Assembly: GCA_902834965.1 (NCBI GenBank)
Contig: CADFKY010000007.1
Coordinates: forward strand, 1 to 23,991
DNA: 23,991 bases
Reading direction: 5' to 3'
Source of the DNA: Veillonellaceae bacterium
Lineage (GTDB): Bacteria > Bacillota_C > Negativicutes > Veillonellales > Veillonellaceae
Positions 10,610 through 17,280 of this stretch are shown here, piece after piece. The translations under genes were made by a program, and so were the position numbers. Position 1 is the stretch's first letter. Every line of letters begins with the position of its first letter. The notes beneath the pieces were generated by a model, which saw only the letters and a list, made by a program, of their open reading frames with translations, ran no database searches and was not told where the DNA came from.

Positions 10610-10665
10610 AGCCTATGAAAAGTTCTGTATTATGCTTAATAAATATAAGCCAAGAGGGTACTAAT

Positions 10666-12219
10666 ATGATTACACAAGAGTTGAAAGATCGATTAATTGC
10701 AGATTATCCAAAGTTTGAAGATATGACGCATAAGTTCTATAAGAAAGAAATGTCTATTGCAGACTATAAAGGGCAATCCGGTGCCTATGGTAGTTATGCT
10801 GAGCGTGGTGCTAACTCTGGTATGAGCCGTTGGCGCTTCAACGGTGGGCGCATGACACGCGAGCACATGCAGTTTTTAGCGGACTCTATTCGCAAATATA
10901 ATTTGCAGCACGTACATTTCACTACTGGCCAATGTTTGCAAATGCATGGCCTCGATGGTGATACAATTCTAAATCTATATAAAGAATGTTATGATCACGG
11001 TATCTATAACCGCGGTGCTGGTGGTGACAATCCAAATGTGGTAGCTAGTATTTTGCGCGGTATTGATCCTCGTGAAACCTTAGATATTACGCCATATGCA
11101 ACGGCTATTAGCGAGTTTCTTCTAGAGCAAATGTTCTACATCAAAATCCCTCGCAAATTTAAAATGGGTATCGATAATGGCTTTGATAGTACGCCGCATG
11201 CTACGTTCAAGGACCTTGGTTTCAATTTAACGAAACACAATACCTTTGATGTATACGCTTGTGGTGGTATTGGCCCAAATCCTCGTATTGGTATTCCTGT
11301 AGCGCACGATGTGGCGCCTGAGGATGTTTTATACCATGTGAAAGCTATGCTTATGGTCTTTGCTAACCATGGAAATTTCAAAAACCGTGGCAAGGCTCGT
11401 ACTCGCTATATGCCTGCGGAAATGGGTGGAGCTGAAGCTTTCATCAAGACCTATGAAGAAACATTGGCGATGGTGAAAGAAGTTGAGCAATTAACCATTA
11501 ACCCAGCTGACTATGCGTATGAAATTACGAAAACGGGTAAGCGTGATAATTCTGTGGAAAATGATCGTATTCACCGTCAAAAACAAGAAGGTTTATACTA
11601 CGTTGAATACCATCCGGCAGGTGGTGATGCTAATGTAGAACATCTATTGGCTGCTCTCGATTATGCCGTAACACTGGATCAAGTGGAGGCTCGTATTGCG
11701 CCAGACCAAGCATTGTTCTTCATCAACCTTACTGCTGATGAGGCTCGTAAAATTGTAGAATTAACAGATGACAGTGCAGAAAATGACTTCCGCCGTTCCG
11801 TATCCTGTGTAGGCTCTACGGTTTGTCAAATCGGTATGCAAGACTCCAATGGTCTTTTAAAAGACATCTTCAGACACCTTGAAGAAAAAGGTGTAGATAC
11901 AAGTAAACTACCTCGTCTACACATCTCTGGCTGTCCACACTCCTGTGGTACACACCAAATCGGTGAAATTGGCTTCCATGGGGCGGTAAAACTAGTAGAT
12001 AAGAAACCTACAGTAGCCTTCATCCTTGTAGACGGTGGTTCCGAACACATGGGCTCCGAAAACTTCGGTAAAATGGCAGGTAATATCGTAGCCACAAAAA
12101 TCCCAGAATTCCTTGAAGCATTGGCAAACATTCTGAACAAATCCCCAGAACCAGACTTTGGTACATGGAGAATGACACACAAAGCGGAATACATGGAACT
12201 TATAAAAGCATTTGAGTAA
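10666..12219 (+). CDS. Siroheme/4Fe-4S nitrite/sulfite reductase, ferredoxin type
   Basis: I chose the ATG at 10666 because AAGAGG lies eight bases before it; the in-frame ATG at 10615 lies at the probable transcription start. The 517-residue product shows the duplicated family layout: a ferredoxin-like half domain (about residues 45-105, with MSRWRFNGGRMT), a first NIR/SIR half, then a second half domain and the cluster site. Cys381 and Cys387 (CVGSTVC) and Cys423 and Cys427 (SGCPHSCG) make the C-x5-C...C-x3-C pattern that binds the 4Fe-4S cluster and the siroheme iron. It should reduce sulfite to sulfide or nitrite to ammonium with six electrons in the cytoplasm. Sequence reading alone does not separate the two; the cystine transporter upstream mildly favours sulfur. 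The last codons form one arm of a long inverted repeat. Confidence 0.9.
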   Translation: MITQELKDRLIADYPKFEDMTHKFYKKEMSIADYKGQSGAYGSYAERGANSGMSRWRFNGGRMTREHMQFLADSIRKYNLQHVHFTTGQCLQMHGLDGDTILNLYKECYDHGIYNRGAGGDNPNVVASILRGIDPRETLDITPYATAISEFLLEQMFYIKIPRKFKMGIDNGFDSTPHATFKDLGFNLTKHNTFDVYACGGIGPNPRIGIPVAHDVAPEDVLYHVKAMLMVFANHGNFKNRGKARTRYMPAEMGGAEAFIKTYEETLAMVKEVEQLTINPADYAYEITKTGKRDNSVENDRIHRQKQEGLYYVEYHPAGGDANVEHLLAALDYAVTLDQVEARIAPDQALFFINLTADEARKIVELTDDSAENDFRRSVSCVGSTVCQIGMQDSNGLLKDIFRHLEEKGVDTSKLPRLHISGCPHSCGTHQIGEIGFHGAVKLVDKKPTVAFILVDGGSEHMGSENFGKMAGNIVATKIPEFLEALANILNKSPEPDFGTWRMTHKAEYMELIKAFE

Positions 12220-12232
12220 ATTTCCTTTTCCG

Positions 12233-12374
12233 CTTGTGATGGGGCCCCGTTAGATTGCGACAACTCAATAAATAATAAAAAGAGGTCCCTCTTTGCTCCG
12301 TTCTTCGCAAAGTCGCTGCATAGGGACCTCTTTTTATTATTTGAGCGTCTGCTATTAACTAGTCCCATCACAAG
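12233..12374 (+). repeat. Structured repeat element, copy A (three-tier hairpin)
   Basis: The outer stem is CTTGTGATGGG (12233-12243) with CCCATCACAAG (12364-12374). The inner stem is 21 bp and perfect, 12270-12290 with 12322-12342, AT-rich at its base (AAATAATAAAAAG) and capped by AGGTCCCT/AGGGACCT. The loop contains a 28-base sequence (12293-12320) found again, inverted and identical, at 12686-12713. The box GATGGGGCCCCGTT (12238-12251) also recurs, inverted, at 12755-12768. A third tier pairs the end of the upstream gene (12201-12220) with 12387-12406. The inner hairpin ends in a T-run and probably also terminates the reductase transcript. No transposase or coding potential is seen. Confidence 0.9.
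12270..12342 (+). terminator. Hairpin of copy A acting as terminator of the nitrite/sulfite reductase gene
   Basis: The 21-bp stem has A-rich 5' and T-rich 3' ends 50 bases past the stop. The 31-base loop is unusually long for a simple terminator, and the hairpin would work in both directions. Confidence 0.65.
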
Positions 12375-12423
12375 CTACATCTGATCTTTACTCAAATGCT
12401 TTTATATGATGGGGAAAGGGAGA

Positions 12424-12533
12424 GACTAGCCGCAGGCTAGTCCTTCCCCTACGGTGGGCATAGCGCCACTACTCTAAATCCTAGTTGCAGGCTATTTTTT
12501 CCCACATGGTGGGCGTGGCGCCACTACTCTAAA
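12424..12533 (+). repeat. Tandem pair of 55-bp repeats
   Basis: Unit 1 (12424-12478) and unit 2 (12479-12533) are exactly adjacent and align end to end with about 80% identity. Both end in GCGCCACTACTCTAAA. Unit 1 holds a perfect hairpin, GACTAGCC-GCA-GGCTAGTC (12424-12442), enclosed by GGGGAA (12411-12416) and TTCCCC (12444-12449); unit 2 keeps only part of it. Unit 2 contains the palindrome GTGGCGCCAC. No reading frame is evident. Confidence 0.85.
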
Positions 12534-12626
12534 GCTTATTATAGGGTGTAAAATTTTAGTGTTTTCTAGATTTATTTTATAGATTAATTGTAATGGTGCT
12601 TGGGAGTGCTTATAACTTGATTATAG

Positions 12627-12655
12627 TTGACTTTTGGATGGGACATCTTTACAAA
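12627..12655 (+). promoter_or_regulatory. Possible promoter in front of hairpin B
   Basis: TTGACT (12627-12632), a 17-base spacer and TACAAA (12650-12655). Transcription would begin near 12662, directly at the foot of hairpin B. The -10 is only a moderate match, and part of the sequence belongs to the repeat element itself. Confidence 0.35.
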
Positions 12656-12773
12656 TAGCGTGATAAAAAAGTAAGGATGCGCTTGTGCAGCGACTTTGCG
12701 AAGAACGGAGCAAGCAAGGGTATCCTTACTTTTTTTACCAAGTTGTACTAACGAAACGGGGCCCCATCCGAAA
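12632..12773 (-). repeat. Structured repeat element, copy B (inverted relative to copy A)
   Basis: The outer stem TTTTGGATGGG (12632-12642) pairs with CCCATCCGAAA (12763-12773; one wobble). The inner 14-bp stem AAAAAAGTAAGGAT (12665-12678) pairs with ATCCTTACTTTTTT (12722-12735). The 28-base loop (12686-12713) is the exact reverse complement of the loop of copy A, and AACGGGGCCCCATC (12755-12768) matches the box of copy A inverted. Stem sequences differ from copy A while pairing is kept. A weaker third tier, GCTTATAAC (12608-12616) with GTGATAAGC (12786-12794), mirrors the extra tier of copy A. Confidence 0.88.
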
Positions 12774-12849
12774 GGGCAATATATAGTGATAAGCTAGCAT
12801 CATTACAATTAGAATGATTGGTTAAAACTAGATATCACTTGATTTTGTG

Positions 12850-12858
12850 TGTTATAAT
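12850..12858 (+). promoter_or_regulatory. Extended -10 promoter of the nitroreductase gene
   Basis: TGTG-T-TATAAT has its hexamer at 12853-12858, a perfect consensus; no convincing -35. The expected start near 12865 excludes the upstream in-frame ATG at 12847 as start codon. Confidence 0.7.
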
Positions 12859-12891
12859 AGGCTTTATAGTAGTGTTTGGAGGATTTATCAG

Positions 12892-13707
12892 ATGTTATTT
12901 ACCGTCAATACAGAAGTCTGTACACGATGCGGCCTTTGCGTAGCTGACTGTCCAACAGGCTTGCTAGTGATGTCCGAAAATGGGCCTGTAACTGGCAAGG
13001 GAGGTTGTATCTCCTGTGGGCATTGTATTTCCGTATGCCCAACGCTTGCTCTTGATAGTGATATGACCCCACGTAAAGAGCAAATCGATATCACAAAAGA
13101 ACAAAAATTAACGCCAGAGCAAGCTGAGTTATTCTTGCGCAGCCGTCGCTCTATTCGTAATTATCAAAATAAACCAGTTCCTGCTGAGCTTATTCGCAAG
13201 GTCTTAAACGTTGCAAGAATGGCTCCAACAGCAACAAATACACAAGGTATTTCCTATATTGTTATTCGGGACAAACAAAAGTTGCGTCGCATTGCAGATC
13301 TCGTTCTTGAGTGGATGCATTTGGCTGCGAAAACTGTGCCGATTATGCGTCTTTATGCTCGTGCAGCACAAGCTGAGGTCGATAAGGGTAAGGAATACAT
13401 CTTGCGCGATGCGCCTGCGCTAGTAGTGGCCATCGGTTCTAAAAAAGATATTCACCGTACTCACGATAGCGGGCATTCCTGCTTGTCTTATGCAGAGTTG
13501 TATGCACCAACATTAGGTTTAGGCACTTGTTGGGCTGGCTTCTTTGAACATGCAGGCGAAGCAGAGTATAAACCACTATTGGAACTATTAGGTGTACCAG
13601 AGGATAAAATCATTGCTGGTGGTATCTTGATGGGCTATCCAAAGGTTCGTTACCGTAACATCGTGGAACGCCAACCATTGGACGTAACATTCGATACTGA
13701 AGAATAG
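12892..13707 (+). CDS. 4Fe-4S ferredoxin-nitroreductase fusion protein
   Basis: The ATG at 12892 has GGAGG eight bases upstream; the earlier in-frame ATG (12847) lies ahead of the promoter start. The 271-residue product begins with a two-cluster ferredoxin domain: CTRCGLCVADCP within residues 10-21 and CISCGHCISVCP near 40-51. A flavin (FMN) nitroreductase domain follows from about residue 80 (RSRRSIRNYQNKPVP, then ARMAPTATNTQG, and LGLGTCWAGFF). Such fusions are common in anaerobes and are thought to use reduced ferredoxin or internal clusters to feed FMN; the physiological substrate is unknown. It is a single-gene transcript with its own promoter and terminator. Sure of the domains, not of the role. 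Confidence 0.9.
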   Translation: MLFTVNTEVCTRCGLCVADCPTGLLVMSENGPVTGKGGCISCGHCISVCPTLALDSDMTPRKEQIDITKEQKLTPEQAELFLRSRRSIRNYQNKPVPAELIRKVLNVARMAPTATNTQGISYIVIRDKQKLRRIADLVLEWMHLAAKTVPIMRLYARAAQAEVDKGKEYILRDAPALVVAIGSKKDIHRTHDSGHSCLSYAELYAPTLGLGTCWAGFFEHAGEAEYKPLLELLGVPEDKIIAGGILMGYPKVRYRNIVERQPLDVTFDTEE

Positions 13708-16891: not shown

Positions 16892-17222
16892 TACAGAAAT
16901 GGTCATTACCGTTGCTATTGTTGTAGCCGGTACATTACTCACTCGTTTTGGTGCCTTCCTTGTATTTCCACCAGGAAAAAAGGCACCAGATTTTGTACTC
17001 TTTTTAGGTAAGGCTTTGCCGGCTGCCGTTATGGGCATGCTCGTTGTATATACCTTTAAGGAGACCGTCATTTTAGCATATCCGTATGGTATCCCTGAGC
17101 TCATAGCATTAGTTGTTACGGTAGGGTTACATTTATGGAAACGTAACATGCTCATATCGATTGCTGCCGGTACAGTGATTTATATGATACTCGTACAAGC
17201 CGTATTTAATGTGCCGAAATAA
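16884..17222 (+). CDS. azlD: AzlD: small subunit of branched-chain amino acid exporter
   Basis: The TTG at 16884 is the preferred start because GGGGAGG (16869-16875) lies eight bases before it. The next ATG (16899) is 23 bases from that site, and an upstream TTG (16857) precedes it. The 112-residue product is a four-helix membrane protein of the AzlD/YgaH family (LLTRFGAFLVFP near the start, LGKALPAAVMGML in the middle). It pairs with AzlC to export branched-chain amino acids. The gene ends the group and a terminator follows within 50 bases. Confidence 0.9.
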   Translation: MTSTEMVITVAIVVAGTLLTRFGAFLVFPPGKKAPDFVLFLGKALPAAVMGMLVVYTFKETVILAYPYGIPELIALVVTVGLHLWKRNMLISIAAGTVIYMILVQAVFNVPK

Positions 17223-17225
17223 AAT

Positions 17226-17276
17226 AAACCACTTGTATCTATTCTTAGAGGAGTAGATATAAGTGGTTTTGTTTTT
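17226..17276. terminator. Convergent terminator shared by azlD and the aldo/keto reductase gene
   Basis: AAACCACTTGTATCTA (17226-17241) pairs with TAGATATAAGTGGTTT (17254-17269; one wobble). Ts follow on the plus strand. It sits between two converging genes and could serve both. Confidence 0.85.
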
Positions 17277-17280
17277 ATAT

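What the first reader, a model, noticed from the sequence alone, without database searches (positions are those of the whole stretch)
12201..12794. Two inverted copies of a structured element with an invariant 28-nt loop and covarying stems
Seen directly: the loops at 12293-12320 and 12686-12713 are exact reverse complements (28 of 28). Both sit on long perfect stems whose sequences differ (AGAGGTCCCT in A, AGTAAGGAT in B), yet each stem is fully self-complementary. The outer stems also differ while pairing (CTTGTGATGGG in A, TTTTGGATGGG in B). GATGGGGCCCCGTT is shared at matching distance. Conserved loop plus compensated stems is the hallmark of selection on structure, not of a simple duplication. 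Inference: a structured RNA motif, a protein-binding RNA loop, or a hairpin-type non-autonomous mobile repeat (REP/MITE-like). I do not recognise it as a named family.
Basis: seen in the sequence. Interest (0 to 1): 0.85.

Follow-up and report, generated by a model that had tools for sequence, protein, structure and literature searches.

The report
Conserved-tip hairpins ending Veillonella genes
The two matching hairpins belong to a family of structured hairpins that sit just after genes in Veillonella and its close relatives, look like transcription stop signals with a conserved tip, and often lie at the centre of an inverted copy of the neighbouring DNA.

Summary
The two loops are exact reverse complements on long stems of different sequence, and they belong to a dispersed family: 138 core-bearing hits (136 sites) at 48 locus groups were analysed, all from the family of Veillonella, with no Rfam match. 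The conserved part is two short strands, GCTCC and AAGTCGC, around a variable insert, on a stem whose 20 pairs all change on both sides. Copies lie 3' of unrelated, often housekeeping, genes, in their sense at 32 loci against 3, mostly with a T-tract. In seven orthologous sets the core diverges 0-3%, outer flanks 15-48%. Best reading: an intrinsic-terminator/3'-UTR RNA element whose tip is kept by selection, probably as a binding site for an unknown factor. Unexpectedly, at 29 of 47 loci the flanks are inverted copies of each other, sometimes of coding 3' ends, against 2 of 103 coreless hairpins; template switching during replication may explain this and some double-sided stem changes. Against: the wobble test does not favour sense RNA, A-tracts are nearly as common as T-tracts, and window B follows no gene end. 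REP/RAYT and attC membership is not supported. Termination, binding and mobility are untested.

The parts
12270..12342 (+). Element A: stem P1 (12270-12290 / 12322-12342) with loop
   Evidence: 21 of 21 pairs; 86.2 bits with model R1, 83.3 with R2; it is in the training set of both
12293..12320 (+). Element A core loop; conserved strands GCTCC and AAGTCGC
   Evidence: family conservation
12201..12243 (+). Element A outer left arm: 3' coding end of the NIR_SIR gene plus CTTGTGATGGG
   Evidence: inverted match to 12364-12406, 35 of 43 columns
12364..12406 (+). Element A outer right arm, inverted copy of the left arm
12665..12735 (-). Element B: stem P1 (12665-12685 / 12715-12735) with loop
   Evidence: 19 of 21 pairs; 84.5 bits with R1, 82.9 with R2; in the training set of both
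12686..12713 (-). Element B core loop, exact reverse complement of 12293-12320
12763..12874 (-). Element B outer arm (upstream in B's sense): region before the nitroreductase-like gene, with a promoter-like site
   Evidence: inverted match to 12522-12642, 87 of 124 columns; TATAAT hexamer ends at 12858, a consensus match only
12522..12642 (-). Element B outer arm (downstream in B's sense), inverted copy of 12763-12874
10615..12219 (+). Gene upstream of A: nitrite/sulfite reductase (NIR_SIR, NIR_SIR_ferr)
   Evidence: Pfam
12892..13707 (+). Gene to the right of B: 4Fe-4S and nitroreductase domains (start at the ATG chosen by eye; the longest ORF begins at 12847)
   Evidence: Pfam; ORF

Best explanation
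Each element is a structured 3'-end RNA element of genes in the family of Veillonella: an intrinsic-terminator-like hairpin (P1, about 20 bp, usually an A-tract before and a T-tract after) whose tip carries a conserved asymmetric internal loop, GCUCC on one side and AAGUCGC(UGCA) on the other, closed by a variable apical part. SHOWN by computation: the family, the covariation, the 3' sense placement, and the low divergence of the core within the orthologous sets examined. INFERRED: that P1 terminates transcription; that the tip is bound by a trans-acting factor (protein or RNA) acting on the mRNA 3' end or on read-through. INFERRED for the DNA side: template switching during replication copies one stem arm or flank onto the other, which repairs P1 with double-sided changes and lays down the long inverted copies of local flanking DNA around the hairpin. 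In the window, A is the 3' element of the sulfite/nitrite reductase gene; B is an exception with no same-sense gene ending before it.
For: Covariation: 20 of 20 pairs with a double-sided change, 90.4% of cells paired, covariation score 0.852 against 0.245 in shuffles and 0.18-0.26 for slid partners. Core letters over 90 aligned copies: GCTC 88-89, TCGC 84-86. A gene of at least 100 codons ending within 200 nt: 32 loci sense only, 3 antisense only, 4 both, 9 neither. At least 5 T in 8 near the 3' foot: 95 of 120 distinct copies. Orthologous sets (7 sets chosen by me, 42 sequences): core 0-0.029, P1 0-0.14 with 786 of 840 pairs Watson-Crick, outer flanks 0.147-0.483. dnaB: element in 7 of 14 genomes; a rule-based scan finds strong coreless terminator hairpins at the same place in 2 of the other 7 (G003, G014), a 9-bp one in G007, none in the remaining 4. 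Inverted flanks: 91 of 136 copies and 29 of 47 loci above the 99% control level, against 2 of 103 coreless hairpins. Double against single pair differences: 5:0, 8:0 and 91:19 in three sets. Monttinen and Loytynoja (PMC8794818; abstract and start of introduction seen) report that template switching can create and maintain RNA hairpins.
Against: Single mismatches in P1 favour A-C (28) over G-T (17) on the sense strand, counted once per cluster over 22 clusters; RNA function of the sense strand would predict the reverse. At least 5 A in 8 stand near the 5' foot of 86 of 120 copies, so the T-tract alone does not show direction. The outer right arm lies beyond the T-tract, so a terminated transcript would not contain it. 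In the glmM and mfs sets single differences exceed double ones (54:9, 12:0), cit has 0 double and 2 single, dnaB none. Window B and 8 other loci have no gene ending within 200 nt on either side, some of them close to the edge of the fetched stretch. A standard terminator scan found none at 12100-13000, as it allows loops of 3-8 only. 18 of 47 loci do not pass the inverted-flank level. No expression data, no known binding factor.
Confidence: 0.6

Rival explanations
1. A DNA-level mobile palindromic element (MITE- or REP-like) whose tip is a recognition site for a transposase-like enzyme; terminator activity is incidental.
For: ligA-gatC: element in 2 of 14 genomes and not in the other 12, none of which has a terminator-like hairpin there. 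Near-identical copies at two loci share the inner parts and TATATTGATGGG. At dnaB one genome (G011) has a different inner module between the same outer arms. Inverted flanks are nearly confined to core-bearing hairpins.
Against: Orientation follows the upstream gene, 32 loci to 3. The core diverges least within orthologous sets. Y1 transposases were not found in copy-rich genomes such as G002, G048 and G008 and give 12 hits, many partial, in copy-poor G007. Reverse transcriptase domains in 6 of 28 genomes. Other transposase families were not tested.
Confidence: 0.25
2. An attC-like recombination site folded as single-stranded DNA.
For: Same general plan (recalled): variable complementary stems, a few conserved unpaired letters, variable tip, placement after genes; ORFs downstream of glmM differ between genomes.
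Against: No integron integrase above cut-off in any of 28 genomes; 5 have weaker matches, and the 14 control genomes hold none above cut-off either, so there is no positive control. The conserved letters are at the tip, not at the base of the hairpin. Copies follow housekeeping genes.
Confidence: 0.04
3. A terminator-embedded riboswitch or other cis-regulator of the downstream gene.
For: [quoted passage not shown]
Against: Placement follows the upstream gene end, several copies stand between convergent genes, and upstream genes are functionally unrelated. Downstream genes were not compared by function.
Confidence: 0.06
4. Ordinary terminators; the tip is alike only because copies are recent duplicates.
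For: Terminator-like anatomy and position.
Against: Stems differ completely between loci while the tip stays, and within orthologous sets the tip diverges far less than the flanks.
Confidence: 0.05

Closest known systems
Rho-independent (intrinsic) transcription terminators
   Same: Stem followed by T-tract in 95 of 120 copies, directly 3' of genes in sense orientation
   Different: Conserved asymmetric tip on a long loop region; long inverted local flanks
Terminator-embedded aptamers: HMP-PP and guanidine-IV riboswitches, HRC-8-4 motif (PMC8632094, passages)
   Same: Terminator stem with well-conserved letters at the tip
   Different: Those are cis-regulators placed before or between the regulated genes; these follow genes of unrelated function
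REP/BIME and other stem-loop repeat families (PMC2267715, passages)
   Same: Dispersed stem-loop repeats outside genes
   Different: REP stems are conserved in sequence (recalled); here stems vary and the tip is conserved; Y1 transposase distribution does not match
attC sites of integrons; OTH-22-1 (PMC8632094, passages)
   Same: Variable complementary stems with a few conserved letters and variable tip (attC features recalled)
   Different: Conserved letters at the tip; no integron integrase above cut-off
Template-switch (quasipalindrome) mutation (PMC8794818, abstract)
   Same: Double-sided stem changes and reverse-complement copies beside a hairpin
   Different: Here the inverted copies are concentrated at one conserved element family

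Membership tests
Rfam release 15 families | Reaches a family's gathering score | tested here: not met
   0 matches in the window at gathering; in 6 further loci 2 weak overlapping snoRNA hits below gathering, at L136 1207-1268, away from the elements
Intrinsic terminator | Stem followed by T-tract on the transcript strand | tested here: met
   95 of 120 distinct copies with at least 5 T in 8; 86 of 120 also have an A-tract on the other side
Intrinsic terminator | Sense position after a gene end | tested here: met
   32 loci sense only, 3 antisense only, 4 both, 9 neither
Intrinsic terminator | Stops transcription | not testable with these tools
   no expression data held
REP/REPIN mobilised by RAYT (Y1) | Y1 transposase in genomes that carry the repeat | tested here: not met
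   PF01797 in 13 of 28 family genomes; none in copy-rich G002 and G048
REP/REPIN mobilised by RAYT (Y1) | Stem sequence conserved between copies (recalled) | tested here: not met
   stems vary, tip conserved
attC site | Integron integrase in the genome | tested here: not met
   TIGR02249 above cut-off in 0 of 28; no positive control in that call
attC site | Recombination of the folded bottom strand | not testable with these tools
   -
Terminator-embedded riboswitch | Lies in the leader of the regulated gene | tested here: not met
   placement follows upstream gene ends
Terminator-embedded riboswitch | Binds a ligand | not testable with these tools
   -
DNA uptake sequences paired in terminators | Hundreds of short identical copies per genome (recalled) | tested here: not met
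   0-4 near-exact core copies per genome of the genus; at most 29 model matches at E<=0.1 in any of 28 family genomes, some doubtful

The most novel reading that the evidence does not exclude
The tip is the signature of a self-propagating 3'-end hairpin: the hairpin primes snap-back copying of the sequence before it (by a polymerase on DNA, or on the terminated transcript), so that the element grows inverted copies of local gene ends, spreads between gene ends in transcript orientation, and is then kept as a terminator bound by a lineage-specific factor.
Probability: 0.15. Interest if true: 0.9.

Novelty: new variant of a known kind. Interest (0 to 1): 0.7.

Why it matters
If the reading holds, a bacterial family uses terminators with a conserved, probably bound, tip at the ends of many genes, a layer of 3'-end control for which I found no published name in the searches made. 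Separately, the elements give a natural, repeated test of the idea that template switching builds and repairs RNA hairpins, because the inverted copies include known coding ends and can be compared with orthologues. They also warn that strong covariation need not come from stepwise compensation.

Tried and rejected
Named RNA family: no Rfam match at gathering in the window, none near the elements in six further loci. Phage, plasmid and viral-contig origin: no match at the settings used. Loop cassette dropped into a pre-existing terminator: not supported at ligA, where 0 of 12 genomes without the element have a terminator-like hairpin by the scan, though at dnaB an inner module differs between genomes within the same outer arms. 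REP/RAYT, reverse transcriptase and integron integrase as obligatory partners: distribution does not fit. Strand choice by G-U wobble: an apparent 47:15 bias for A-C became 28:17 after clustering; left open. A general paired P2 at the tip: only some variants exceed shuffles (e.g. L138, L144, L136, L153), most short ones do not. Weak model matches: below about 35 bits they include coreless hairpins, e.g. window 17216-17279, so the '28 of 28 family genomes at E<=0.1' must not be read as presence. Outside the family, 5 genomes had one hit each at E<=0.01 among 300 of the class: G146 and G039 have no core, G018 has an AAAGTCGTTGCA look-alike without GCTCC and stays ambiguous; G087 and G103 were not looked at. 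A hit in G019 has no core pair either.

Rows left out: A2 used 26 of the 27 distinct copies (L006:7707-7787 omitted). A5 holds the best 150 of 195 hits; 138 were kept by a loose core pattern; one site was fetched twice (L151 and L181), so two of the 138 are repeats; one kept hit per copy of that site (L151:587-789) has a 135-nt insert and is doubtful. Flank tests used 136 of 138. The 7 orthologous sets were chosen by me. In one search the control pairs included orthologous loci; one search repeats it without them. In one search (0 of 74 coreless hairpins at score 36) the cross-control could pair a hairpin with itself; one search replaces it. An earlier by-eye reading that G002 has an ordinary terminator after dnaB was not borne out by the scan.

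Full report
WHAT IS THERE. The window carries two elements in the intergenic region between a nitrite/sulfite reductase gene (10615-12219) and a 4Fe-4S/nitroreductase gene (ATG at 12892, end 13707). Stem A is 21 of 21 pairs, stem B 19 of 21. Both fold far better than shuffles (z -12.3 and -7.5). The source is not held; the nearest genome shares 22% of sampled words, and a 25-nt core pattern has exact matches in 3 stretches of named genomes: Veillonella rogosae, V. infantium and V. parvula SKV38.

THE FAMILY. A near-exact core pattern is found in 11 of 61 genomes of the order, all in the genus of G001 (11 of its 14 genomes), and in 0 of the 47 others. A covariance model from 26 copies (R1) finds more divergent copies: 13 of the 14 genomes of that genus match at E<=1, G007 not; so do G048 (genus g11) and 5 of 7 genomes of g13; three genomes of other families have one weak hit each. 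A second model (R2, 90 copies) gives up to 29 matches at E<=0.1 in one genome, but its weak matches include coreless hairpins. In 300 genomes of the class, searched with stricter filters, 25 match at E<=0.01, 20 of them in the family of Veillonella; the other 5 have one hit each, of which three were looked at: two have no core, one is ambiguous. Genus g12 had only weak hits that I did not inspect.

ANATOMY. Comparing copies shows that the conserved part is two strands, GCTCC (15 of 90 have A at the last place) and AAGTCGC followed by TGCA, with a variable insert between them. Stem P1, about 20 bp, differs from locus to locus and stays paired: 20 of 20 pairs change on both sides, 90.4% of cells are paired against 57.2% in shuffles, covariation score 0.852 against 0.245; sliding the partner by 1-3 columns gives 0.18-0.26. 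As the tool warns, related sequences can exceed such shuffles, and A2 holds many orthologues. In the Veillonella genus a second conserved layer lies outside P1: ATGGGGCCC..ACAACTTAATTAAAAA on the left and TTTTTATAAC..GTCCCAT on the right (by eye).

POSITION. Of 48 locus groups (138 hits), 32 have a same-strand gene ending within 200 nt before the element and none ending into it from the other side; 3 have the reverse, 4 both, 9 neither. Genes were called by a simple ORF rule. Upstream genes are unrelated: of ten upstream proteins scanned, NCBIfam names DnaB, GlmM, FtsH, AspS, GuaA, GroEL and Gnd above cut-off; a purL-like one is cut by the locus end and stays below cut-off, a TrkA-domain protein (Pfam) and a 172-aa protein have no NCBIfam hit at E<=1e-30; the LigA fragment has HHH and BRCT domains. 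95 of 120 distinct copies have a T-tract and 86 an A-tract on the other side. Several inverted pairs are simply the 3' elements of two convergent genes. Window B is not of that kind: no gene ends before it in its sense.

SELECTION IN PLACE. In seven orthologous sets chosen by me (42 sequences) the core differs by 0-2.9%, the insert by 0-22%, P1 by 0-14% with 786 of 840 pairs Watson-Crick, the J region by 9-27% and the outer flanks by 15-48%. This argues that the tip does something where it stands. At dnaB, 7 of 14 genomes have the element; of the other 7, a rule-based scan finds strong coreless terminator hairpins in G003 and G014, a weak one in G007 and none in 4. At ligA the element is present in 2 of 14 genomes; none of the other 12 has a terminator-like hairpin there.

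INVERTED LOCAL FLANKS. The DNA on either side of P1 is often an inverted copy of itself: 91 of 136 copies and 29 of 47 loci exceed the 99% level of 2588 between-locus controls; of 103 coreless hairpins with stems of at least 13, 2 do. 18 of 47 loci do not. In 23 copies the arm overlaps the upstream coding end by at least 12 nt. Examples: 82 of 108 columns for a trkA-like gene (L117), 76 of 102 for ftsH (L123), 43 of 52 for purL (L122), and in the window 35 of 43 (A) and 87 of 124 (B). At about 70-85% identity with gaps these arms look like decaying copies, unlike P1. Because a coding end is the constrained partner, the downstream arm is probably the copy (inference).

MECHANISM. I propose a terminator-type 3'-end RNA element with a bound tip, and template switching as the source of inverted flanks and of part of the double-sided stem changes. 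Template switching has been reported to create and maintain hairpins (PMC8794818, abstract and introduction start). For it: double against single pair differences of 5:0, 8:0 and 91:19 in three sets. Against: 9:54, 0:12 and 0:2 in three others, and none in dnaB. These are pairwise counts, not events. The sense-strand wobble test does not favour RNA (28 A-C to 17 G-T). The outer right arm lies after the T-tract and cannot be in a terminated transcript. These points keep confidence at 0.6.

WHAT IT IS NOT, AS FAR AS TESTED. No Rfam family; no Y1 transposase correlation; no integron integrase above cut-off, with no positive control in that call; reverse transcriptase domains in 6 of 28 genomes; no phage, plasmid or viral-contig match at the settings used.

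LITERATURE. Searches on Veillonella or Negativicutes with repeats, palindromes, terminators and structured RNA gave listings, in part capped, without this element by title or start of abstract. In PMC8632094 I read passages and one section: it names ilvD and potE motifs in Veillonella and a gltD motif in Selenomonadales and Veillonellales; its supplements could not be read, so an unnamed candidate there cannot be excluded. In PMC8040213 (passages) palindromic candidate RNAs of microbiomes are listed in supplements that I could not read; 'Veillonella' does not occur in its main text. PMC2267715 was seen in passages.

CHECK. 

Noticed in passing
window 12426-12535: Two 55-nt tandem units (80% alike) with GGTGGGC..GCGCCACTACT; a like 25-nt stretch occurs once in each of 7 of 14 genomes of the genus, at coordinates between the A/C and B elements.
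   Followed up: partly
L107, L131, L154, L155, L161: Element copies stand beside a 121-aa ORF of RnpA size and TGTGGATAAC-like letters, some at chromosome ends, i.e. probably near the replication origin (by eye).
   Followed up: no
L210 1360-1440 (G011 dnaB 3' end): A different inner module sits between the same outer arms as in the other species, as if modules were exchanged.
   Followed up: partly
L024, L028, L003, L032, L015: The ORFs downstream of glmM differ between genomes, and the flank changes at the element.
   Followed up: no
window 12522-12642: The inverted copy beside B includes a copy of the promoter-like region of the nitroreductase gene, with TATAAT kept on the minus strand (by eye).
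   Followed up: no
L142 281-610: Further GC-rich repeats (CGTAGCGAGCGAAGCAATGCGG and like) near three element copies in a g13 genome.
   Followed up: no
G001, G003, G006, G007, G012 and others: Y1 transposase genes with up to 12 hits per genome, patchily distributed.
   Followed up: no
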